A DNA stretch of 37,561 bases. Source: a virus. Shown here piece by piece: positions 1-37,561 of this stretch (position 1 is its first letter; each line of letters opens with the position of its first letter). Location of the stretch: positions 1 through 37,561 of IMG/VR virus record IMGVR_UViG_3300030098_001864; one strand, given 5' to 3'. The notes below the pieces were generated by a model. It had not been told where the DNA came from, searched no databases, and worked only from the letters and a program-made list of their open reading frames with translations. The position numbers and the translations under genes are program-made.

Positions 1-50
1 TTGACTTGCTTGGGTCCGGCTACTTCATTAGCCAACTTGTTCATGTCCAT
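1..50 (-). CDS. Partial CDS: first 17 codons of the 80-aa early protein (second copy at 36911..37153)
   Basis: The start codon is at 50 on the minus strand and the reading frame runs off the left edge. The translated start (MDMNKLANEVAGPKQVK) is identical to the N-terminus of the full gene ending at 37153. The GAAAGGGG ribosome binding site upstream is also conserved. This is the same gene seen through the terminal redundancy, not a separate paralogue. Confidence 0.85.
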   Translation of the reverse strand, partial: MDMNKLANEVAGPKQV

Positions 51-79
51 CAGTAACCCCTTTCAAGGTCAGAATAAAG
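1..79. repeat. Left copy of the terminal redundancy, first anchor
   Basis: These 79 bases are identical to 37104..37182. Similarity then continues with a few mismatches and one indel to about position 148, matching to about 37252. Such a match at a contig edge suggests a circular or circularly permuted molecule whose assembly broke at a variable site. Confidence 0.93.
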
Positions 80-121
80 CCCCGTCTTACATGCCGAAGC
101 AAAGCGGAGCGTGGGGAAGAA

Positions 122-140
122 CGTCAGCAACGTGCCGACG
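122..140. promoter_or_regulatory. Imperfect dyad around CAACGTG upstream of the 80-aa gene
   Basis: Arms CGTCAGCA and TGCCGACG flank a central ACG, giving 8-base arms with one mismatch. The same element is kept in the right-end copy at 37225..37243 although the bases around it vary. It lies in the about 100-base leader between the upstream gene and the 80-aa gene. It could be an operator or a small RNA hairpin; the sequence does not decide which. Confidence 0.3.
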
Positions 141-151
141 CGAAATAGTCG

Positions 152-718
152 TTATTTTGCATCCGACTTGGCTGCTGTCTTGAACGAAGTCCATTCCAAG
201 GTTCGGATGCCTTTGATGTCTTTGATCTTGTCTGCACCAAATCGCAGGTGAACAGACCGCATCAGGTCAATTTCCCAACGCTGGTTATTCATTCTGTCGC
301 TGACTTTGAACTGCCGCTTGTAGATGTAGTATTCGCCATCGCCGCAATCATCGGTTTGGACAAAGACCTTGGTTCGGGTCTTGGCCTTCCATTCCCTTGC
401 GACCATGTGTTCGTCGAACATTTCTCCAAACAAGCCTTCCATGTCCAGAATCACGTCTTCGCCATTGAAAGTCGAAGTAAACCACACAATGTTGGCCTGC
501 TTCAACTTGTATTCCAGTGCTTTGAACCGTACTGGAGCGATGACATCAATCATCAGTGAGCCGCCGTTGCCGTCATCGCTAATGCGAGCGATTGGCATGT
601 AGCCGTGCCACACTTCGGCGTTGTATGCGTGGCCTTCGTGAATCGGCCCTGCTAGGACGTTGACCTTCTTCAGTTCGATGTCGTTCTCAGCGACGAAGTT
701 CTTGATTTCGTTGTTCAT
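152..718 (-). CDS. Hypothetical early protein, 188 aa
   Basis: I do not recognise a family for this soluble, charged 188-residue protein. It has no signal peptide, membrane segment or cysteine cluster. The ATG at 718 follows GAAAGGGG with good spacing. It is the first gene after the terminator at 825..852 and so probably opens the early operon that continues through the small genes and the methyltransferase. The C-terminus differs between population variants: here it ends in lysine-serine-aspartate-alanine-lysine, while the right-end copy (37473..37561) ends in alanine-threonine-glutamate. Its leader and first codons are nearly repeated in front of the 62-aa gene at 37255..37443. Confidence 0.75.
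   Translation of the reverse strand: MNNEIKNFVAENDIELKKVNVLAGPIHEGHAYNAEVWHGYMPIARISDDGNGGSLMIDVIAPVRFKALEYKLKQANIVWFTSTFNGEDVILDMEGLFGEMFDEHMVAREWKAKTRTKVFVQTDDCGDGEYYIYKRQFKVSDRMNNQRWEIDLMRSVHLRFGADKIKDIKGIRTLEWTSFKTAAKSDAK
167..243. repeat. Left copy of the terminal redundancy, second anchor
   Basis: These 77 bases are identical to 37485..37561, the extreme right end of the window. They lie in the 3' part of the 188-aa gene. Two exact matches of 79 and 77 bases at the contig edges look like k-mer-length anchors on either side of an assembly bubble. Confidence 0.93.
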
Positions 719-28944: not shown

Positions 28945-29781
28945 TTAAACCCCGCACATCCCATCACACTCGTCATCCCATCCAAACACGTTCTGGCCCT
29001 TTTCAACGTCTGAACGAAGATCTACTTCCTCGAGGGGCTTGCAGCTACGGTGAATAAACGCTTCCCCGGCCATATTGGTCCCCTGGCGTATGGTTCTGTC
29101 GAAATCGACCGCATCTGCCCATTCTTTGGGGTTTTCCTTGATTCTCCGCCATTCTTCGTTGCTGTGGTAGGGGCATCCAATGCAAGCTGATCGAGGAACG
29201 TGGATATCCGGGTAGTTCTTCTCGAGCCATTCAATGCACTGGTAGCGTTTAATCGGCTTTGGGAAGTAGTCTGCCGGCATGTTGCAGAACGGGAATACAT
29301 GCTCTTTCCACTTGTCTGAACTGGCCTTCGCCCTTTGTATCTCGTCCCAAGATATGCCCATCCATTGCTGAATAACGACCTCTTTGGGAGCGCGTTGCCT
29401 GGGCTTCAGTCCTATCACCTCACGCCTCATGAAACGCTCTACAGGCTTAATCTTGTACTGGAAAGTGCATTGCCTGCGTACCATGCTCGGCTTACCGTTT
29501 TCTTGGATGACGTACAGGGGGATAGCCATAAATCGCCCCCCGTCGTTGCGGTTTGTAGGCGTGAAATCCTCTCTTAGATTTCCGTTGGTGACCCGTACAA
29601 CCTTGATTCCGTAGTCAGCAGCGTACTTTTCGCACCACTCCAGGTGAGTGTAAACCTCTTCTGGCTCCCATTGTGTGTCTGCGAAGATTGCGTAATCGAG
29701 CTTGGGCAGTATCCCCTGGCAAGACATCAGCAAAAGAGCGGTTGATTGAACCCCGGCTCCAAATGAAAGTACCTGTTTCAT
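28945..29781 (-). CDS. PP-loop ATPase, PAPS-reductase-like
   Basis: The 278-residue protein starts with a PP-loop, SFGAGVQSTALL (6-17), and continues FADTQWEPEEVYTHLEWC, typical of the phosphoadenosine phosphosulfate reductase / adenine nucleotide alpha-hydrolase superfamily. The C-terminal ACIGCPYHSNEEW (199-211) is the cysteine signature of the phage branch. Such enzymes adenylate or sulfurate a substrate; phage members are unassigned, and relatives such as DndC modify DNA. AAGGTG lies upstream of the ATG at 29781; a GTG 30 bases earlier is an alternative. It is flanked by terminase and the modification cluster, so a DNA-modifying role deserves thought (inference). Confidence 0.85.
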   Translation of the reverse strand: MKQVLSFGAGVQSTALLLMSCQGILPKLDYAIFADTQWEPEEVYTHLEWCEKYAADYGIKVVRVTNGNLREDFTPTNRNDGGRFMAIPLYVIQENGKPSMVRRQCTFQYKIKPVERFMRREVIGLKPRQRAPKEVVIQQWMGISWDEIQRAKASSDKWKEHVFPFCNMPADYFPKPIKRYQCIEWLEKNYPDIHVPRSACIGCPYHSNEEWRRIKENPKEWADAVDFDRTIRQGTNMAGEAFIHRSCKPLEEVDLRSDVEKGQNVFGWDDECDGMCGV

Positions 29782-29818
29782 GCTCCACACCTTCTGACGC
29801 TGAAACGTCACCTTTGGC

Positions 29819-30172
29819 CTAAGCTCGCCGTTTTCTCCTGCGCATCGGCAGTAAGGCTACTCCAAATATAGCCAAAGTTCCGGGAGCTGGTGCGATCACT
29901 TCAGTCAGGTTTGAAGCACCCGATTTGAAGGCGTTAATTGAGTCAAGCCATTCAACCAGGCTGTCCAACGCTTCTTTGCCAAAAATGACCCCAATGGCTA
30001 CAGCAATGATAGTCAGCGTAAATACGCGCTTGTCCAGCTCTCGGATCTTCTTGTCTTTAGCCTGGGTGTTCTTCTTACAGTTGAACAGGTCTGATTTAAG
30101 CTGATCAACCTCTTTATTTCGGCAGTACGGGCAATCGCCCTTGGCTGCGTTCTTTGTTTCCCCGGGGTCCAT
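29819..30172 (-). CDS. Membrane protein with a PEP-CTERM-like C-terminal sorting signal
   Basis: The 117-residue protein has an N-terminal C-P-Y-C zinc-knuckle-like motif (14-17) and another Cys at 32, a charged coiled segment, and a hydrophobic stretch (50-64). It then ends in PAPGTLAIFGVALLPM (95-110) followed by RRRKRRA. The tail closely follows the exosortase PEP-CTERM pattern of Pro-x-Pro-Gly/Ser, one hydrophobic helix and a terminal Arg cluster. Such signals are known from exopolysaccharide-making Gram-negative bacteria, Planctomycetota and Verrucomicrobiota. No typical N-terminal signal peptide is visible, so the topology is puzzling. Sits between the small and large terminase genes. 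Confidence 0.7.
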   Translation of the reverse strand: MDPGETKNAAKGDCPYCRNKEVDQLKSDLFNCKKNTQAKDKKIRELDKRVFTLTIIAVAIGVIFGKEALDSLVEWLDSINAFKSGASNLTEVIAPAPGTLAIFGVALLPMRRRKRRA

Positions 30173-30552: not shown

Positions 30553-31356
30553 TCAAAATGGCTTTACCACCGGCATCCGCGTCGTTGTTATCGATTTCAA
30601 TCGAAGATTAGCGCGTCCACCTGCTTTCATTTTCATTGTTGCAAGGCCCGGATACGCATCTGCTATCTGTTGGAGCCTTTGTTCATGCCGATCGAATCGA
30701 TCATCCCCTTCTTTTTTGACCTCTTCATCTATTCCACCAGGGGCGAAATACTGGGTTTTGACTGTCACATTTTCCATTCTAACCATGCTTTGAAACCAAA
30801 ACCAAGCGATCAAACTGGTTTCAAAATCTTCTGCACTTGATTCATCTGACAGCCGTTTAGACGTCCATATTCTATTTCCGGCAAACGAGCCAAAACAACA
30901 ACCAATGATGTATCTCAACCCATTGACGATTTGGTTTTTCATGTAAAAAGCGTTGCGTGCCGGGTAAACACCCCAAATCGGAGATCCTTGATCTTGGCAA
31001 ATCTTGAACCCTGTTGTTGCCCAGTCGTCAAAATGATCTGTGAACTCTTCGAGTTTCCCATTCTCATTCAATTGCTCGATTTTCTCAATATCATCGTCTA
31101 AACTCAGAACAGGGGTGCCAGGTGCGTAATGTTGTGTCATGTAAAAACGCCTGCATTCGAATATGCCCAACTTTGCTATGGTTATTTCCCATTTATCATC
31201 TAAAGCTTCTCTGTATTTGACATACTGGTCGTGATTTGCGACAAACACTGTTACACGTTCTGGATCAACTTTGTTTCTTTCCAAAGTGTTAAGTGTTTTG
31301 TTTTTCAACACTTCCGAACGTTCATAAGACGGCACAGCGATTTTGTAATCGATCAT
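30553..31356 (-). CDS. TET-associated glycosyltransferase-like protein
   Basis: The 267-residue protein begins YKIAVPSYERSEVLKNKTL and has VLSLDDDIEKI, giving a D-D-D (87-89) DxD-type metal site of a GT-A fold. This start and the partner gene match the glycosyltransferases found beside TET/JBP enzymes in phages (TAGT family), which add sugars to 5-hydroxymethylcytosine. AAGGGA lies upstream of the ATG at 31356, and it overlaps the TET gene by ATGA, so the two are coupled. The sugar donor is unknown. Confidence rests on the conserved start, the DDD motif and the neighbour. Confidence 0.85.
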   Translation of the reverse strand: MIDYKIAVPSYERSEVLKNKTLNTLERNKVDPERVTVFVANHDQYVKYREALDDKWEITIAKLGIFECRRFYMTQHYAPGTPVLSLDDDIEKIEQLNENGKLEEFTDHFDDWATTGFKICQDQGSPIWGVYPARNAFYMKNQIVNGLRYIIGCCFGSFAGNRIWTSKRLSDESSAEDFETSLIAWFWFQSMVRMENVTVKTQYFAPGGIDEEVKKEGDDRFDRHEQRLQQIADAYPGLATMKMKAGGRANLRLKSITTTRMPVVKPF

Positions 31357-32279
31357 GTTAAAGACGTCCCTTCTCCACCCATGGGGTTGTTGTGGCTCCG
31401 GTTCTTAGCCCGGTCCACTTCATCAGACGCTGAGCCGCAATGTTTCATCTTGTCTCGGTAGTAAAGCACCAACGCTAAACGTCGATATTGCCCAGGGTGT
31501 CCATAAAAAGGCGTGTTTCCATGCCACCTGTGGACATTAGCGAACAAGATGCCCCTGGTTCTCATGTCTACCGCCAACCGGTACTCAGGGAAACAGGTCA
31601 AACACCCCTCGTAGTATCCGGCTTCCATAGCGGTCATTACTCCGCAACCGTCAGGATAATCGCCCTGGTCTTTATGGACTGCTGTTTGCCAGTTGGCATT
31701 GACGGTGACTGTCGTGAACACTGAATCGCCGATCACGAAGTCTGGAGACGTTTCTTTGACCACTGATTCTTGGTTTGAATACAGCTCTGGGACGTTGTCT
31801 TTGAACGCTTGGGAGATGAACTCAATCATCGGGATCGCAGATTCGTATTTCTCGCGATGTTTGACGGTATAACTGGTCTGCCGGCAATAGGGCATTCTCG
31901 GAGTCCGGTCGAAATACCCGACTATTCCAGACATCACGCTCGCAGCCCGATTGGTGTTGCTCATGGTGCCGTCTTTTTTGACAGCCCGCCATTTTGCAAC
32001 TTGTTTCCCTGTTTCAGACGTAATATCCTCATTGATACCAGCAGCAATTCCCCTGTTGTCAGTGGTTCCTGCTGCGTCATTCAACGCGTCATAACCCTGG
32101 CGAATCAATGATGTTGGGATGATGTTAGGTATGTACCTGGCGAGAAGCTTGCCTTCTTCGTCCAGAACCAGGGAGTCTTCCCTCACTACGGTGTCGTAGG
32201 AAGCTTCGGTCAACTGCTTGCCGGCCAATTCCCCAGCTTCTTCGTCGGTCAAATGACGCTTGGCTTCAATCGTTTTCAT
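31353..32279 (-). CDS. TET/JBP-family 5-methylpyrimidine dioxygenase
   Basis: This 308-residue Fe(II)/2-oxoglutarate oxygenase has the TET/JBP core: FTTVTVNANWQTAVHKDQGDY with the metal ligands His202 and Asp204, then LAVDMRTRGILFANVH and WHGN (His253, likely third ligand), and YRRLALVLYY with Arg266 or Arg267 for 2-oxoglutarate. The family oxidises 5-methylcytosine (or thymine) in DNA. A methyltransferase and a TAGT glycosyltransferase in the same genome indicate 5mC as substrate. It overlaps ParB upstream and TAGT downstream. The N-terminal 130 residues are a family-typical helical part. Confidence 0.93.
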   Translation of the reverse strand: MKTIEAKRHLTDEEAGELAGKQLTEASYDTVVREDSLVLDEEGKLLARYIPNIIPTSLIRQGYDALNDAAGTTDNRGIAAGINEDITSETGKQVAKWRAVKKDGTMSNTNRAASVMSGIVGYFDRTPRMPYCRQTSYTVKHREKYESAIPMIEFISQAFKDNVPELYSNQESVVKETSPDFVIGDSVFTTVTVNANWQTAVHKDQGDYPDGCGVMTAMEAGYYEGCLTCFPEYRLAVDMRTRGILFANVHRWHGNTPFYGHPGQYRRLALVLYYRDKMKHCGSASDEVDRAKNRSHNNPMGGEGTSLT

Positions 32280-32955
32280 GTGTTGTCACTTTCTCGAGAG
32301 CCGCCAATACGGTATCTGTCGGGTTGTCCGTCCCCAAGACTTCGGCGGCCATTTTCAACCTATCGAGGTAAATCTCGATCGATTCTACGTCAAAGTACAG
32401 TTGAACCATACGGACATGGGAAGAGGGAGCATCTGTCTTGACGTTCGGCATCGTCCTGGACAGCCCTGGGTCACTGGTGGTTTCCAACGTATCGTCTTCG
32501 TCCATACGAAGTTCTAGTGTCTTCGTGATCTTATTCAACATCTTGTTGAGGTCGTTTTGGCTGAAACCTGTAGAAGCGATGTCCTCAATAGCGATCTCTT
32601 GAAGGGTGGCCGCAAGCTGGATTTCGTCCCAATCAGACAACTCCGACGTCCTGTTGTCGGCGATCGCGTATCCCATTTTTTCGGCTTCTGTTAGGTCCGT
32701 TCGAACGATGTCGATGCTTTCCCAACCAAGTTCTCGAGCAGCCGCCAACGTGCCGTTACCAGCGATAACCACGTTCTGGTGGTCAACCACGATCGGTTTC
32801 TGAAGCCCCCATCGCCTCAGAGACTCTTTGATCGCTTCCATGTTGTGATGGCTATGCTCTCTGGCATTCTTCTGGTCATTCGTCAAAGAGTCGACCGGAA
32901 CACTCTCTACGGTCAGGCCTGGTGTTTTATTCTTCTTCGTCTGGCTTTTGGACAT
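32266..32955 (-). CDS. ParB/sulfiredoxin-like phage protein
   Basis: From the ATG at 32955 (GAGGA upstream; a GTG 27 bases earlier is rejected) this is 229 residues. It shows the ParB/Srx core: QKNAREHSHHNMEAIKESL, then KPIVVDHQNVVIAGNGTLAA (64-72 loop) and AIADNRTSELSDWD. Such proteins bind or cut DNA or hydrolyse nucleotides; they are frequent next to phage DNA-modification genes. It opens the TET-TAGT cluster and overlaps the TET gene. The C-terminal about 90 residues are variable and may bind a partner. Confidence 0.85.
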   Translation of the reverse strand: MSKSQTKKNKTPGLTVESVPVDSLTNDQKNAREHSHHNMEAIKESLRRWGLQKPIVVDHQNVVIAGNGTLAAARELGWESIDIVRTDLTEAEKMGYAIADNRTSELSDWDEIQLAATLQEIAIEDIASTGFSQNDLNKMLNKITKTLELRMDEDDTLETTSDPGLSRTMPNVKTDAPSSHVRMVQLYFDVESIEIYLDRLKMAAEVLGTDNPTDTVLAALEKVTTHEND

Positions 32956-33199
32956 TCGGGATTTCCTCAACGATTGCGCCACCTTGAATGGCGATCACTG
33001 CGTACAAGGCGCGAGCAACCTGCTCCCAAACCTCCCTGTACGATCGTTTCAAATCATCCCAATCTGTGAAGTCGTAGTCAAATGCCGTGTCCATGCTGGT
33101 TGCCATAGCAAGATAACCCGCCTTCGCGCAGGCCTTGATGAGAGCCTGGGAAGGTGCGGGCATCCTTGCTTCGGTGTGGTCTACGCGTTTGGCTATCAC
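32927..33199 (-). CDS. Hypothetical phage protein, 90 aa
   Basis: A 90-residue protein containing SQALIKACAKAGYLAMATSMDTAFD and ending in acidic residues. It most likely begins with GTG at 33199: AAAGGG lies five bases upstream and the GTGA overlap with the stop of the 44-codon gene is a standard coupling. An ATG at 33163 is the alternative. It overlaps the ParB-like gene by about 30 bases. Function unknown; the centre is a helical pair. Confidence 0.65.
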   Translation of the reverse strand: MIAKRVDHTEARMPAPSQALIKACAKAGYLAMATSMDTAFDYDFTDWDDLKRSYREVWEQVARALYAVIAIQGGAIVEEIPNVQKPDEEE

Positions 33200-33330
33200 T
33201 TAGACCCTTTTTTCGGACATTTGTCTTTGCAAGTACGACGAAGCTTGCACATGAGCCATTTGAAATAGCCAAGTTCGCTAACGGCAATACCACCAGCAAC
33301 GCTGATTAGAATCATCCAAATATCACTCAT
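33196..33330 (-). CDS. Tiny membrane protein with basic cysteine tail, 44 aa
   Basis: This frame of 44 codons starts MSDIWMILISVAGGIAVSEL at 33330, preceded by GGAGAG. Its start overlaps the stop of the lipoprotein gene (ATGA) and its stop overlaps the GTG of the next gene (GTGA). It has one N-terminal membrane helix and a tail rich in Lys, Arg and Cys (CKLRRTCKDKCPKK). Small size and context beside a lipoprotein and a holin-like gene suggest a role in lysis or the envelope, but no family is recognised. Confidence 0.65.
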   Translation of the reverse strand: MSDIWMILISVAGGIAVSELGYFKWLMCKLRRTCKDKCPKKGSK

Positions 33331-33968
33331 TTGTTGTCTCTCCGTTTGATCTTCTTCCGGGCAGCTTCATACGCTGGATCGGAAGTTCTTCGAATAGCGA
33401 CAGCCTCACGTTGGGCCATCTCGTTATTGTTATCTAGCATTTTCAGGTCGGCTTCGGCTGAACGCATCGTGGCCTTGGGGATAAACATGCCCAATGACCA
33501 CACGACTCGCTTGATCAGCATCCCCAGGCCAGTTTGCCACAGGAGTACGATTACCCCGATGACGATACCGGCAATAGCCAGGTTGCTCATCAGACGCGCC
33601 CACCAGGGGGTCGAATCCTCTACACGGTGCAATGATGATTGAATTTTGACCGTAGCGACTTGGATCTGGTCTTGTTCCGCGATAATCGAGCTGCCAAGCG
33701 TGACTATCTGGCCTTGAGCCTCCATAGCCACAGAATCGGCTTTTACTGACTCGAGAGCCTGGGTAGCCTGGGCAAGCTCAATTATTTGCGTAGCAGATCG
33801 TTTTGAATTTGCAGCCTGGACGTTGACGCTTTGGGCTGAGGAGCCAATCGCCTGTTTGGCCGAAGAGCAGCCAGTGAGGAAGATTGCCCCAACAATTGCG
33901 AAAGATGTGCAAACAGCCGCGATGAACATGGCGGCTGTAATTCGTTCCCAAGCTCTTTTGCTGAGCAT
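33327..33968 (-). CDS. Putative phage lipoprotein with C-terminal membrane helix
   Basis: From the ATG at 33968 (AAGGA upstream) this is 213 residues. It has a basic start, a hydrophobic stretch and a lipobox ending in LTGC with Cys34 as the expected lipid site. Next comes a Gln/Ala/Ser-rich helical region, and at about residue 140 a second hydrophobic helix (NLAIAGIVIGVIVLLW). It may link outer and inner membrane like a u-spanin, or exclude superinfecting phage. Its neighbour upstream is a holin-like protein, which favours lysis (inference). Confidence 0.65.
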   Translation of the reverse strand: MLSKRAWERITAAMFIAAVCTSFAIVGAIFLTGCSSAKQAIGSSAQSVNVQAANSKRSATQIIELAQATQALESVKADSVAMEAQGQIVTLGSSIIAEQDQIQVATVKIQSSLHRVEDSTPWWARLMSNLAIAGIVIGVIVLLWQTGLGMLIKRVVWSLGMFIPKATMRSAEADLKMLDNNNEMAQREAVAIRRTSDPAYEAARKKIKRRDNK

Positions 33969-33969
33969 T

Positions 33970-34254
33970 TTAGGTTTCCTTGTCACGGAACCGTTCAAGA
34001 CGTTCAACTCGGTCAATCAATTCTTTGAGTTTCATGTCTGTAGCGGCTTTTTGGCTTGCTGCTTTCCAAACCAACGTAGTTGTCATCGCCAAACCTGCCA
34101 AAAACAGGCCAAGCGGTATCAATGTGCTTTCGTTTATTACGTTTCCCCCTGGCGAGCCCACGTCCATGACTCCGGCTAGTCCAACGGCTGTGGTCCCGCT
34201 TGACGCTACCCCTGTAGCGAGCAGCCATATCAATTCTGTTGCTTCTTTGACCAT
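33970..34254 (-). CDS. Possible holin, 94 aa
   Basis: The 94-residue protein has a hydrophobic N-terminal stretch (ELIWLLATGVASSGTTAVGLAG), a second helix (STLIPLGLFLAGLAMTTTLVW) and a charged coiled C-terminus (LKELIDRVERLERF). Two membrane segments plus a short charged tail is a class-II holin layout. It is followed directly by the lipoprotein. No endolysin was recognised near it, so the lysis assignment is tentative. Confidence 0.5.
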   Translation of the reverse strand: MVKEATELIWLLATGVASSGTTAVGLAGVMDVGSPGGNVINESTLIPLGLFLAGLAMTTTLVWKAASQKAATDMKLKELIDRVERLERFRDKET

Positions 34255-34257
34255 CGT

Positions 34258-34647
34258 TTACTCAATCGCTGTAGTTTCGCCGTCCCATAGTGTTTCGGTT
34301 GTACGATTCTTTTTGACGATCTTCAAGGGGAATGGACCATATTTCAACCACAGGCGTCGTATCCTTCGGAACGCTTCCGTTTCCATTCCTTTGACTTCGA
34401 TAGCCTCAAGAATGCCATCGGTGTAACAAACAACGAAATCCACTCGATATCGGTCATCTTCTGTCAAGTCAATCGGAACCTGGCGGAGCCACCAGAGCAC
34501 AAGTCTGGCACCCACCATTGAGTCAAGTTTCTTGGCAAACTCCGCTTCCGCTTTCGAATCAAATCGCCACCCTCGGTAGGTAGTCGGATTCGCGTTGAAC
34601 TTGTTTCGTTTAGGAAATCTGACTCTTGGGTGTTTGCGTTTGGCCAT
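34258..34647 (-). CDS. DUF1064-like endonuclease
   Basis: From the ATG at 34647 this is 129 residues. It contains RFDSKAEAEFAKKLD, then YRVDFVVC and EAIEVKG, giving a D...ExK arrangement (Asp70, Glu84, Lys86) of the PD-(D/E)xK nuclease fold. Phage DUF1064 proteins are thought to resolve DNA junctions or process replication intermediates. It begins just after a strong terminator, so it needs either read-through or a promoter in the 34697..34814 gap. A TTG further upstream lies inside the terminator and is rejected. Confidence 0.7.
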   Translation of the reverse strand: MAKRKHPRVRFPKRNKFNANPTTYRGWRFDSKAEAEFAKKLDSMVGARLVLWWLRQVPIDLTEDDRYRVDFVVCYTDGILEAIEVKGMETEAFRRIRRLWLKYGPFPLKIVKKNRTTETLWDGETTAIE

Positions 34648-34662
34648 CCGTAGATGATACGT

Positions 34663-34696
34663 AAAAAACAACAAGACCGGAAATAAATCCGGCCTT
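34663..34696 (-). terminator. Strong rho-independent terminator between early and middle genes
   Basis: On the minus strand, AAGGCCGGA pairs with TCCGGTCTT (9 bp, one G-T) around a 6-base loop, followed by GTTGTTTTTT. This is the clearest terminator in the window. It separates the early operon (ending with the 48-aa gene) from the nuclease, lysis-like, modification and terminase genes. The T-tract ends 15 bases before the next start codon, so full termination would silence that gene unless another promoter or antitermination acts. Confidence 0.8.
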
Positions 34697-34713
34697 GCTG
34701 CGAAAGGGGTCGA

Positions 34714-34763
34714 GTGAGTTACTGTGTCTTAGAAAGCGATGAACAAAATAAGACAAGACTCAC
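34714..34763. promoter_or_regulatory. 50-base interrupted inverted repeat in the intergenic region
   Basis: Outer arms GTGAGT (34714-34719) and ACTCAC (34758-34763) and inner arms TGTCTTA (34725-34731) and TAAGACA (34749-34755) are perfect inverted repeats with a 17-base loop. A further GCTGC/GCAGC hairpin lies beside it, toward the stop of the 48-aa gene. The 118-base gap has no gene on the minus strand. It could be an operator, an antitermination site or a small RNA. Confidence 0.5.
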
Positions 34764-34814
34764 TGCAACAAATTCGTGCTGCTCCAAGCAGCTTGGGGAA
34801 ATGTCAAGAATAAA

Positions 34815-34961
34815 CTACCTTCTGTGATCTTCCAACGCAACTCTCTTTGCCTCTTCCAGCGAAAGGCCGCCGTCATGGATGCAGATAGCGATTCGTTCAC
34901 GATACGCATCTACGGCATCAGGACCGCTTCGGGAGACTTCTTCGGGTATTTCTTCTGTCAA
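34815..34961 (-). CDS. Small acidic protein, 48 aa
   Basis: The stop of the 102..68-aa gene upstream (TGA) overlaps a TTG at 34961, with AGAGG nine bases ahead, so I start the gene there and not at the in-frame TTG at 35018 that would overlap deeply. The 48-residue product (TEEIPEEVSRSGPDAVDAY and a helical Glu/Arg-rich tail) has no known family. It is the last gene before the strong terminator. Confidence 0.5.
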   Translation of the reverse strand: MTEEIPEEVSRSGPDAVDAYRERIAICIHDGGLSLEEAKRVALEDHRR

Positions 34962-35161
34962 GTGTCTAATCCTCTGATGGGATACTTCGTCAATGACCCT
35001 GTTCTTTCCGCTTGCCAAATTCGGCTTTCAGCTTCTTGCCTGTCCCAACCGTATCTTTTCCGCAGCCATTCAAGCATTTCAGGATGACTCATGTCGTATC
35101 GGATTCTCTTGTTGTCGATCCAGGTTGCCAGGTCGTAAGGTGTTGGACCATCTTGTTTCAT
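34958..35161 (-). CDS. Hypothetical protein, 67 aa
   Basis: From the ATG at 35161 (AAAGG six bases before it) this is 67 residues, MKQDGPTPYDLATWIDNK and then a helical part rich in Arg and Trp. An upstream in-frame extension exists but lacks a ribosome binding site. The stop TGA overlaps the next gene's TTG. Soluble, function unknown. Confidence 0.6.
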   Translation of the reverse strand: MKQDGPTPYDLATWIDNKRIRYDMSHPEMLEWLRKRYGWDRQEAESRIWQAERTGSLTKYPIRGLDT

Positions 35162-35185
35162 TTGTAACCTTTGAAGCGATATAAA

Positions 35186-35242
35186 CCCCGTTGTTTTTCC
35201 AGCACGGGGCCACACTGGGTTAAGTAACCAACAACGTGTTGG
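35186..35242 (-). promoter_or_regulatory. Hairpins between methyltransferase and the next early gene
   Basis: CCCCGT (minus strand) pairs with ACGGGG around a 12-base loop (35186..35209), followed by TTTAT, a weak terminator at best. Next to it lies a perfect 15-base dyad CCAACA-ACG-TGTTGG (35228..35242), whose centre CAACGTG is also the centre of the dyad at 122..140. The gap 35162..35274 contains no gene that I can see. Confidence 0.35.
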
Positions 35243-35274
35243 CGTGAGATAGAGATTCGCATGAATCAAACAGC

Positions 35275-36150
35275 CTACATGGCATTAGTAGGTTTACAAA
35301 CCTCTTTCTCGTAAGTCAATATCGCTTCTCCAATCAACTGTGGTATCTGAGGAACTACGGCGTTTCCGAGTTGTTTAAGTCTGTCCATCCGATTGGGAAC
35401 CCCATCAGCCACTCGACCCACGTTGGATTCAGTTTGCCAGTGACTTGTTCCGCTTCTTGCACTGAGGCATCCAAATAGCCTTTCTCTAATCGGTGCAGAT
35501 GAGATTTGGAACCCAGTGGACCGACACCCTTCCATTCCGATGCGCGTGGCGTCGGCCATAACCTGACAGCACCGCCGAGCGTTGTTCCGCGCTTCGTCCC
35601 CCTGGTCGCACCTGCCCCGCGCACTTGGTTGTTGTCCTGTGTCGTGGGGTTGGGCCACAATCCAGATGCGGTCCCTCTGGTGAGGCGCGCCAACGGCGCT
35701 AGCGGGTATGCAATGCCATTCAGCGCAATACCCGATCTCGCAGAGATTTTGTAAGACCAGGGTAAGCCCCTTAGATCGAAGGGTTGATACATTTTCAATA
35801 ATTGCCCACGCTGGCCGTACATCTCTGATGAGTCGAAACATCTCCGACCAGAGACCGGAACGCTCCCCGATGATTCCTTCGCCTTTCCCTGCGGAACTGA
35901 TGTCCTGGCAGGGGAATCCTCCGGTGATGACGGTTGGAATAAGTCCATCTGCTTGCAGTCGTTCAAACGTCAACTCCTTTATATCCCCATAGACAGGAAC
36001 GGTAGGCCAGTTCTTATTCAGCACCAGCTTTGCCTTTTCATCTTGCTCACAGAAAGCCACAGTCTCAAATCCGCCAGTCCTTTCAAGGCCAAGACTGAAT
36101 CCTCCCACGCCACTGAATAGGTCAAGGATTTTGAATTTAGTTTCGCTCAT
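35275..36150 (-). CDS. DNA C5-cytosine methyltransferase
   Basis: The 291-residue enzyme has all core motifs: LDLFSGVGGFSLGLE (I, 9-23), GGFPCQDIS with catalytic Cys81 (IV), ENV (119-121, VI), QRDR (158-161, VIII) and LGNAVVPQ (261-268, X). It transfers a methyl group from S-adenosylmethionine to cytosine C5 in DNA. The short target-recognition region (about 170-240) cannot be read for sequence specificity. The ATG at 36150 overlaps the preceding gene and has GAAGAG upstream. With TET and TAGT it would supply 5mC for hydroxylation and glycosylation. A 197-codon frame runs inside it in another phase. Confidence 0.93.
   Translation of the reverse strand: MSETKFKILDLFSGVGGFSLGLERTGGFETVAFCEQDEKAKLVLNKNWPTVPVYGDIKELTFERLQADGLIPTVITGGFPCQDISSAGKGEGIIGERSGLWSEMFRLIRDVRPAWAIIENVSTLRSKGLTLVLQNLCEIGYCAEWHCIPASAVGAPHQRDRIWIVAQPHDTGQQPSARGRCDQGDEARNNARRCCQVMADATRIGMEGCRSTGFQISSAPIRERLFGCLSARSGTSHWQTESNVGRVADGVPNRMDRLKQLGNAVVPQIPQLIGEAILTYEKEVCKPTNAM
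35355..35948 (-). CDS. Overlapping ORF inside the methyltransferase gene (possible overprinted protein)
   Basis: A 197-codon open frame runs same-strand inside the methyltransferase gene, shifted by one base. Its product has strikingly ordered features: SPARTSVPQGKA near the start, SGLWPNPTTQDNNQV in the middle, LWPTPRASEWKG and LNPTWVEWLMGFPIGWTDL at the end. I recall these signatures from a widespread family of phage hypothetical proteins. Each falls opposite a conserved methyltransferase motif (GFPCQDIS, QRDRIWIV, GRVADGVPNRMDRL). So this family may be an overprinted gene or a systematic by-product of methyltransferase codons. The start is uncertain: ATG at 35948 has no good ribosome binding site. 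Confidence 0.35.
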   Translation of the reverse strand: MDLFQPSSPEDSPARTSVPQGKAKESSGSVPVSGRRCFDSSEMYGQRGQLLKMYQPFDLRGLPWSYKISARSGIALNGIAYPLAPLARLTRGTASGLWPNPTTQDNNQVRGAGATRGTKRGTTLGGAVRLWPTPRASEWKGVGPLGSKSHLHRLEKGYLDASVQEAEQVTGKLNPTWVEWLMGFPIGWTDLNNSETP

Positions 36151-36493
36151 GCTGCTCTTCAACATCTGAGTTCATGTTCAGATCGACCAGGCGTTCCATG
36201 TTTTTGGCCTTGTGCGCTTTGACCACATCCATCATGCTCAATCCAATGTGCGCAGCCAACAAATGGTCGTATGGCATTCCGTGCGAAAATGAAACAACTT
36301 CTCCCGTCGTTTGACACTCGAAGTTCCACCCTTGCGGGTGACCGTTTTCCCCGTCAGTTGTCAACGTGTAACGCCAGCAATCTGAAACGGGTGGAGTCGG
36401 AGTAGTTCTGAACTCCCACCCGTACTCTTTTCGTTGCGTGTCAAGACAGTGAACAATGAACCTGCCTCTTGTTTGAATCAGTCTGTCAAGCAT
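36137..36493 (-). CDS. Hypothetical early protein, 118 aa
   Basis: A 118-residue protein with GRFIVHCLDTQRKEYGWEF near its start and WNFECQTTGEVVSFSHGM in the middle, ending in a charged tail. No family is recognised. It overlaps the upstream 78-aa gene by eight bases and the methyltransferase by 14 bases, so all three are probably translated from one message. GGGGG lies upstream of the ATG. Confidence 0.7.
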   Translation of the reverse strand: MLDRLIQTRGRFIVHCLDTQRKEYGWEFRTTPTPPVSDCWRYTLTTDGENGHPQGWNFECQTTGEVVSFSHGMPYDHLLAAHIGLSMMDVVKAHKAKNMERLVDLNMNSDVEEQHERN

Positions 36494-36910: not shown

Positions 36911-37153
36911 TCATTTTCCCTTCCATACGGGAAGTCCCGCAAGTTCCAAGATTCTTCTCATGGGCATCGTGAACGTGGCAGAAGCTGCTGCCTCTTTTGG
37001 GTTGTCAGTGTCTTCGGCATCAACCAAGACCAGTTCACAATCATCAACGGAAATCAATGTTCCCGAACCTGGGTCGAATACCATCGGAACAAGCTTGTCG
37101 CGTTTGACTTGCTTGGGTCCGGCTACTTCATTAGCCAACTTGTTCATGTCCAT
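36911..37153 (-). CDS. Hypothetical early protein, 80 aa
   Basis: An 80-residue protein, MDMNKLANEVAGPKQVKRDK followed by a beta-like core (GTLISVDDCELVLVDAED) and a C-terminal helix (MRRILELAGLPVW). GAAAGGGG precedes the ATG. The first 17 codons recur at 1..50 through the terminal redundancy. It is the first gene downstream of the variable cassette site. Function unknown. Confidence 0.65.
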   Translation of the reverse strand: MDMNKLANEVAGPKQVKRDKLVPMVFDPGSGTLISVDDCELVLVDAEDTDNPKEAAASATFTMPMRRILELAGLPVWKGK

Positions 37154-37182
37154 CAGTAACCCCTTTCAAGGTCAGAATAAAG
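37104..37182. repeat. Right copy of the terminal redundancy, first anchor
   Basis: Identical to 1..79. Beyond it the two copies drift (one base at 37183, several near 37210, one indel) and then diverge completely where the 62-aa gene is present here but absent at the left end. Confidence 0.93.
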
Positions 37183-37254
37183 GCCCGTCTTACATGCCGA
37201 AGCAAAGCGGACCGAAGGGAAGAACGTCAGCAACGTGCCGACGCGAAAATAGGT

Positions 37255-37443
37255 TCAGGCTTCTTGTTTTGCTTGAGCGTTCATTTCAACTTCGACGGCA
37301 TCCAAGAACTGCTCGACAGAGGCTGGTCGGGAAGCGATCGATTGCCAAGTAAGACCGGCGTACTTTGCAGCCGCTTTAATTCGGCGGAGTGTTTTAGGCG
37401 ACACGCGGTAGATGGTGCTTCCAACTTTGGTTTCGTTGTTCAT
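37255..37443 (-). CDS. Small basic protein on a variable cassette, 62 aa
   Basis: The 62-residue protein (MNNETKVGSTIYRVSPKTLRR and a helical, Ala-rich remainder) is present only at this end of the redundancy and missing from the left-end copy. GAAAGGGG precedes the ATG at 37443, in a leader nearly identical to that of the 188-aa gene. The sequence RIKAAAKYAGLTWQSIASRPASV could be a small helix-turn-helix-like fold. It appears to be an optional early gene in this phage population. No family is recognised. Confidence 0.6.
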   Translation of the reverse strand: MNNETKVGSTIYRVSPKTLRRIKAAAKYAGLTWQSIASRPASVEQFLDAVEVEMNAQAKQEA

Positions 37444-37468
37444 CGTTTGCCCCTTTCGAGAGCGTGGT
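37431..37468 (-). repeat. Leader repeat, copy 2
   Basis: Matches 706..743 at 35 of 38 positions, covering the ribosome binding site and the first codons (MNNE) of the 62-aa gene. It lies right after the stop of the variant 188-aa gene, as if the cassette had brought its own copy of the leader. Confidence 0.8.
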
Positions 37469-37472
37469 GTAA

Positions 37473-37561
37473 TTATTCAGTCGCCTTGGCTGCTGTCTTG
37501 AACGAAGTCCATTCCAAGGTTCGGATGCCTTTGATGTCTTTGATCTTGTCTGCACCAAATC
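37473..37561 (-). CDS. Partial CDS: C-terminus of a variant 188-aa protein
   Basis: The frame enters from the right edge and stops at 37473..37475. It encodes the same C-terminal region as the 188-aa gene up to FKTAAK, then ends ATE instead of SDAK. From 37485 to the edge the DNA is identical to 167..243. This is the other variant of that gene at the contig join, not a separate gene. Confidence 0.8.
   Translation of the reverse strand, partial: FGADKIKDIKGIRTLEWTSFKTAAKATE
37485..37561. repeat. Right copy of the terminal redundancy, second anchor
   Basis: The last 77 bases of the window are identical to 167..243. With the first anchor pair this shows that the left and right ends are two versions of one locus that differ by about 215 bases. 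Confidence 0.93.

What the first reader, a model, noticed from the sequence alone, without database searches (positions are those of the whole stretch)
30553..36150. Predicted cytosine hypermodification pathway: C5-methyltransferase, TET dioxygenase and TET-associated glycosyltransferase in one small phage
Seen: a complete C5-cytosine methyltransferase (35275..36150), a TET/JBP dioxygenase with HxD, HGN and Arg motifs (31353..32279) and a DDD-type glycosyltransferase overlapping it by ATGA (30553..31356), with a ParB/Srx-like gene opening the cluster. Known: comparative genomics and enzymology of phage TET systems describe 5mC made by a phage methyltransferase, oxidised to 5hmC by TET and glycosylated by TAGT-type enzymes; from memory, GpC sites were preferred in those studied. 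Inferred: this phage carries glycosylated 5hmC at a subset of cytosines to resist host nucleases.
Basis: partly seen in the sequence, partly recalled or inferred. Interest (0 to 1): 0.85.

Follow-up and report, generated by a model that had tools for sequence, protein, structure and literature searches.

The report
Phage TET–glycosyltransferase DNA modification cassette
A small uncultured phage carries a compact gene cassette predicted to oxidise a methyl group on its DNA bases and attach a sugar to it, but comparison with related phages suggests the modified base may be thymine rather than cytosine, and the neighbouring DNA methyltransferase needs a second protein encoded inside its own gene in another reading frame.

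Summary
The three enzyme genes are real. The TET gene (31353-32279) has an intact iron and 2-oxoglutarate site and a TET2-like predicted fold. The glycosyltransferase (30553-31356) is a DDD/GT-A protein of the TAGT family. The C5-methyltransferase is present but incomplete alone: motif IX lies in a second protein (35355-35966) nested in the +1 frame, the M.EcoHK31I alpha/beta arrangement, conserved in all 167 related loci examined. The cytosine pathway is only partly supported. ParB-TET-TAGT is a discrete cassette; a sibling phage (TerL 85%, portal 94% identical) lacks it yet keeps the methyltransferase. In the window's TET clade 2 of 50 contigs carry a C5-methyltransferase (both near relatives), whereas 30 of 50 carry an amino-acid:DNA transferase known from thymidine hypermodification. 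In another phage TET clade 61 of 61 have a C5-methyltransferase beside TET. I lean to a thymine (JBP-like) TET whose 5-hydroxymethyluracil is glycosylated, with 5mC-5hmC-glycosyl-5hmC a close rival. Between near-identical siblings the glycosyltransferase was swapped gene-for-gene and the methyltransferase recognition region replaced, as in an arms race. All is prediction; no modified base has been measured.

The parts
30553..31356 (-). TET-associated glycosyltransferase (TAGT, GT-A type; SLDDD and AEDFE motifs), start codon overlaps TET stop (ATGA)
   Evidence: PF20691 29 bits, phrog_25200, 13-sequence alignment; 5/5 TAGT-relative contigs carry TET
31353..32279 (-). TET/JBP dioxygenase; Fe ligands H202, D204, H253; 2OG arginine R267; D207 and R275 at base-contact positions
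   Evidence: PF12851 77 bits; alignments; TET2 profile alignment; AF2 model pLDDT 78, Z 21.3 to TET2-DNA and 19.4 to NgTET1
32266..32982 (-). ParB-N-domain protein opening the cassette; role inferred only
   Evidence: PF02195 30 bits, phrog_620 E 2e-40; precedes TET in most relatives
35275..36165 (-). C5-cytosine methyltransferase, alpha subunit (motifs I-VIII and X; likely start ATG at 36150 or 36165)
   Evidence: PF00145 149 bits, TIGR00675 118 bits, phrog_363 E 1.3e-75
35355..35966 (-). Nested +1-frame ORF: M.EcoHK31I-beta-like subunit with motif-IX-like LNPTWVEWLMGFP and the more constrained recognition region
   Evidence: phrog_1008 E 6e-21; same register in 167/167 loci; openness beyond synonymous shuffles; codon-position rates; frame test
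35974..35979 (-). Shine-Dalgarno AAGGAG, 7 nt before the TTG start of the nested ORF
   Evidence: sequence; SD plus TTG/GTG/ATG at the same residue in close relatives such as L045, L047, L048 and L051
28945..29811 (-). PAPS-reductase-like gene, not assigned to the pathway; absent from sibling G001
   Evidence: phrog_424 E 3e-47; alignment gap in G001

Best explanation
A three-gene cassette (ParB, TET, TAGT) hypermodifies phage DNA after replication: TET hydroxylates the 5-methyl group of a pyrimidine in DNA and TAGT puts a sugar on the hydroxymethyl group, shielding the DNA from host nucleases. The base is more likely thymine (thymine to 5-hydroxymethyluracil to glycosyl-5hmU, base-J-like) than cytosine. 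The C5-methyltransferase 3 kb upstream is a separate two-subunit enzyme of the M.EcoHK31I kind: alpha carries catalysis, and beta, encoded in the +1 frame inside the alpha gene, supplies motif IX and probably much of the target recognition. Shown by computation: gene identities, TET active site and fold, TET-TAGT linkage, cassette presence/absence, dual coding. Inferred: all activities, the sugar, the base, the protective role, and that alpha and beta pair.
For: TET site and fold: H202, D204, H253 and R267 invariant, Z 21.3 to TET2-DNA. Coupling: 5/5 TAGT-relative contigs have TET. Thymine lean: in the window's TET clade ADDT 30/50, C5-MTase 2/50, TAGT 5/50; TET+TAGT phages such as P12024L, Acadian and Prairie have no PF00145 gene; [quoted passage not shown] Contrast clade: 61/61 Melnitz-type TETs have an adjacent C5-MTase, with D or G instead of R at position 275. 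Independence of the MTase: sibling G065 has alpha/beta MTase, no TET, and an empty site between g_32927 and TerS. Dual coding.
Against: No modified base has been measured. The window's subclade carries the C5-MTase where the rest of the TET clade does not, and has private TET changes near the active site at otherwise conserved positions (F212C, S269A), so it may have moved to 5mC. ADDT's thymine role is from other phages. Many contigs are fragments and related to each other. The TAGT Pfam score is marginal. The beta subunit gave a poor model (pLDDT 58).
Confidence: 0.48

Rival explanations
1. One reading: the phage C5-MTase makes 5mC at its target, TET oxidises it to 5hmC and TAGT glycosylates it, so only a sequence-defined subset of cytosines is hypermodified.
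For: The window and the two nearest TET phages that have sequence there, G001 and G003, carry the C5-MTase. The subclade has private substitutions beside the TET active site. T6 TAGT acts on glucosylated hmC (PMC13216743). From memory, Burke et al. 2021 (cited in PMC11347163) found phage TETs acting on 5mC next to C5-MTases. The MTase recognition region and TAGT both differ between siblings.
Against: C5-MTase in only 2 of 50 contigs of this TET clade; TET+TAGT phages without it; sibling G065 keeps the MTase without TET; ADDT in 30 of 50; the MTase gene is not inside the cassette.
Confidence: 0.35
2. TET acts on both thymine and 5mC, as reported for NgTET1 (from memory), so virion DNA has two glycosylated bases.
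For: The model resembles NgTET1 (Z 19.4); both substrates should be present in this phage.
Against: No direct evidence; not separable by sequence.
Confidence: 0.1
3. The nested ORF is a by-product of MTase coding, not a protein, and the MTase works as a single polypeptide.
For: No expression data; poor fold model alone; absent from Pfam and NCBIfam.
Against: +1 stops 0.15 observed against 3.93 expected in 41 genes nearly all fetched by the MTase query, +2 control at expectation; third-position suppression and frame-B pattern; conserved SD and start; M.EcoHK31I precedent (PMC3404938).
Confidence: 0.05

Closest known systems
Phage TET / C5-MTase / glycosyltransferase cytosine hypermodification (Burke et al. 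2021 PNAS; from memory, reference seen)
   Same: TET/JBP dioxygenase with a TAGT-type glycosyltransferase in a phage, C5-MTase in the same genome
   Different: The MTase is not in the cassette, is of EcoHK31I type, and is absent from nearly all the TET's relatives
Thymidine hypermodification cassettes with TET/JBP, for example Rhodococcus phage Tonitrus (PMC11955845)
   Same: ParB followed by a TET/JBP-like gene at the head of the cassette; the window's TET clade commonly carries ADDT
   Different: The window has TAGT instead of ADDT and 5hmU kinase
Base J synthesis (JBP dioxygenase plus glucosyltransferase) in kinetoplastids
   Same: Two-step logic: methyl hydroxylation in DNA, then sugar transfer
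   Different: Here the base is not known, the glycosyltransferase is a phage TAGT, and no J-binding domain was looked for or seen
M.EcoHK31I (YGGCCR), two-polypeptide C5-MTase (Lee, Kam and Shaw 1995; summarised in PMC3404938)
   Same: Motifs I-VIII and X in the large subunit, motif IX in the small one; nested alternative-frame gene (nesting from memory)
   Different: Solitary phage MTase, different recognition region; here codon rates suggest the recognition region is constrained mainly in the beta frame, whereas the predicted TRD of EcoHK31I is assigned to alpha
[quoted passage not shown]
   Same: Same Pfam family, DNA glycosyltransferase of GT-A fold (PMC13216743)
   Different: T6 enzyme adds a second glucose to glucosyl-hmC made from dCMP hydroxymethylase; here TET would make the hydroxymethyl group

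Membership tests
TET/JBP dioxygenases (PF12851) | HxD...H iron triad and 2OG arginine | tested here: met
   H202, D204, H253 and R267 invariant; aligned to TET2 H1881/R1896 region
TET/JBP dioxygenases (PF12851) | TET fold and profile score | tested here: met
   77.4 bits against 34.9; Z 21.3, rmsd 3.0, 253 residues to 4nm6
TET/JBP dioxygenases (PF12851) | Substrate base 5mC or T | not testable with these tools
   Only indirect gene-company evidence
TAGT (PF20691) | Profile match with GT-A DxD | tested here: met
   29.0 bits against 27.5, LSLDDDI motif; marginal score
TAGT (PF20691) | Genomic linkage to TET | tested here: met
   Overlapping genes in the window; 5/5 TAGT-relative contigs have PF12851
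Phage TET cytosine hypermodification with linked C5-MTase | C5-MTase co-occurring with TET across relatives | tested here: not met
   2/50 contigs, 1/10 complete phages; 61/61 in another TET clade
M.EcoHK31I-type two-subunit C5-MTase | Motifs I-VIII and X in alpha, motif IX in a second polypeptide | tested here: met
   literature definition
M.EcoHK31I-type two-subunit C5-MTase | Second gene overlapping in an alternative frame and translated | tested here: inconclusive
   Overlap and dual-coding selection shown; translation not testable here
M.EcoHK31I-type two-subunit C5-MTase | Both polypeptides needed for methylation | not testable with these tools
   Needs expression
Base J / JBP pathway | Thymine hydroxylation and glucosylation in DNA | not testable with these tools
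   Needs LC-MS

The most novel reading that the evidence does not exclude
The phage makes a base-J-like glycosylated 5-hydroxymethyluracil in its own DNA with a JBP-like TET and a swappable TAGT, while the co-resident alpha/beta overprinted C5-MTase is an unrelated second modification; phages of this genus gain, lose and re-tip the cassette as one unit.
Probability: 0.42. Interest if true: 0.75.

Novelty: new member of a known kind. Interest (0 to 1): 0.55.

Why it matters
It shows that the presence of a C5-methyltransferase in a TET phage does not by itself make cytosine the substrate, and gives a direct test: TET clades with an adjacent MTase against clades travelling with thymidine-hypermodification enzymes. 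A phage TET acting on thymine would bear on the proposed phage origin of TET/JBP enzymes and of base J. The sibling set (with cassette, without cassette, with swapped glycosyltransferase) is a natural series for testing what the sugar protects against. The nested beta subunit means that expressing the annotated MTase alone, for example codon-optimised so that the inner frame is lost, could give a false negative.

Tried and rejected
phmmer of the single TET sequence against PDB sequences found nothing; the profile did find TET2 weakly. The AF2 model of the nested subunit was too poor (pLDDT 58, pTM 0.24) and was not fold-searched; its profile against PDB gave only designed helical repeats, judged spurious. 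Palindrome and dinucleotide under-representation showed general palindrome avoidance, no signature that identifies the MTase target or the modified base. Literature searches for overprinted phage methyltransferases found no prior survey; the Burke 2021 paper is not held. I considered that the nested ORF was a misread of a single MTase by two frameshifts and rejected it, because third-position suppression extends over motifs IV-VIII. I first took the MTase's presence in the nearest relatives as support for the cytosine route; sibling G065, with MTase but no TET, removed most of that weight. Host not determined.

Full report
OBSERVATION. The window is a 37.6-kb virus record with TerL, portal, head and DnaC-like loader genes, nearly all on the minus strand. 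TAGT and TET overlap by ATGA; TET and ParB overlap by 14 nt.

TET. In an alignment of 22 relatives H202, D204, H253 and R267 are invariant, and in a wider set of 87 they are also fixed. A profile of the family aligns R267 to R1896 and H253 to H1881 of TET2 (TET2 numbering is established knowledge). The AF2 model (pLDDT 78) matches TET2-DNA at Z 21.3 (rmsd 3.0, 253 residues) and NgTET1 at Z 19.4, well above AlkB and FTO (about 12-13).

TAGT. The DDD motif and an ED motif are shared by most of 13 homologues. All five contigs that a TAGT-only search fetched carry TET. So oxidation followed by sugar transfer is a well-supported module.

THE METHYLTRANSFERASE IS TWO PROTEINS. A 203-aa ORF (35355-35966) lies inside the MTase gene in the +1 frame and matches phrog_1008 (E 6e-21). 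All 167 loci with an MTase match also have a match to this ORF, in the same +1 register. In 116 distinct genes the +1 frame is open for 227 codons on average against 99.5 in synonymous shuffles, with 97% significant at 0.05 and 1% for the +2 control. In 41 genes, nearly all fetched by the MTase query, +1 stops average 0.15 against 3.93 expected. Codon-position divergence is normal outside the overlap (0.11/0.06/0.37), third positions are suppressed over motifs IV-VIII (0.13/0.05/0.19), and in the recognition and motif IX regions the pattern is that of frame B (0.41/0.29/0.28 and 0.18/0.05/0.10). At 121 places with the WVEWLMGFP motif the catalytic part is found in the shifted frame at nearly all, and never only in the same frame. 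AAGGAG stands 7 nt before the TTG start, and close relatives have an SD and start codon at the same place. M.EcoHK31I has this division: I-VIII and X in the large, IX in the small polypeptide (PMC3404938); that its small gene is nested in another frame is from memory. The kind is known; its breadth in phages was not found described in the papers searched.

WHICH BASE? First, co-occurrence. In 50 contigs of the window's TET clade a C5-MTase is in 2, both nearest relatives, TAGT in 5, and ADDT (amino acid:DNA transferase) in 30. Some contigs are over 60 kb. Among 10 complete phages with TET or TAGT relatives, one has PF00145 and six have TAGT. Melnitz-type TETs behave differently: 61 of 61 loci with room upstream have a C5-MTase next to TET. 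Second, residues: position 275 (TET2 H1904 by offset from R1896) is R in all 87 relatives of the window's TET and D or G in the Melnitz clade; this is a correlate, not a mechanism. [quoted passage not shown] Fourth, siblings: G065 (TerL 85%, portal 94%) has the alpha/beta MTase but neither ParB, TET nor TAGT, with g_32927 followed directly by TerS; G066 lacks TET too. So the MTase belongs to the phage lineage whether or not TET is there. Against this stands that the window's subclade is the exception that has the MTase, and that its TETs alone have C212 and A269 where the rest have F/Y/L and, with one exception, S. I put thymine at about 0.48, cytosine 0.35, both 0.10.

ARMS-RACE SIGNS. Window and G001 are about 90% identical around this region. 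The break between 31352 and 30542 is exactly the TAGT gene (26-29% protein identity, while TET is 96%); the G001 TAGT is instead 62% identical to that of G002. The MTase recognition region 35432-35637 does not align either, and the PAPS-reductase-like gene is missing in G001. Protection against host nucleases is inference from this and from known systems.

LIMITS. Contigs are fragments and not phylogenetically independent; the ADDT function is carried over from other phages; nothing was expressed. The cassette's ParB gene has no demonstrated role.

Noticed in passing
window 29819-30172: Small gene between TerS and the PAPS-reductase-like gene ends in APAPGTLAIFGVALLPMRRRKRR, like a PEP-CTERM sorting signal, with a CxxC N-terminus; weak NCBIfam PEP-CTERM matches below cut-off, conserved in siblings G001, G065 and G066.
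   Followed up: partly
window 28945-29811: PAPS-reductase-like gene (phrog_424) present in the window and missing in sibling G001.
   Followed up: partly
window 1-243 and 37104-37561: The two ends repeat each other at 94-97% identity with an insertion, suggesting an imperfectly closed circular or terminally redundant genome.
   Followed up: no
L005, L008, L006, L026, L030: In TET relatives the slot after TET holds ADDT, a P-loop nucleotide kinase or a glutamine amidotransferase instead of TAGT.
   Followed up: partly
L343 1-3025: Mycobacterium phage Acadian has ParB-TET-TAGT directly before the terminase genes, with the TET annotated as queuine tRNA-ribosyltransferase.
   Followed up: no
L049 and L050: Nested-ORF C-terminal half 82% identical to the window's while the MTase as a whole is only 41% identical, suggesting recombination of the recognition segment.
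   Followed up: no
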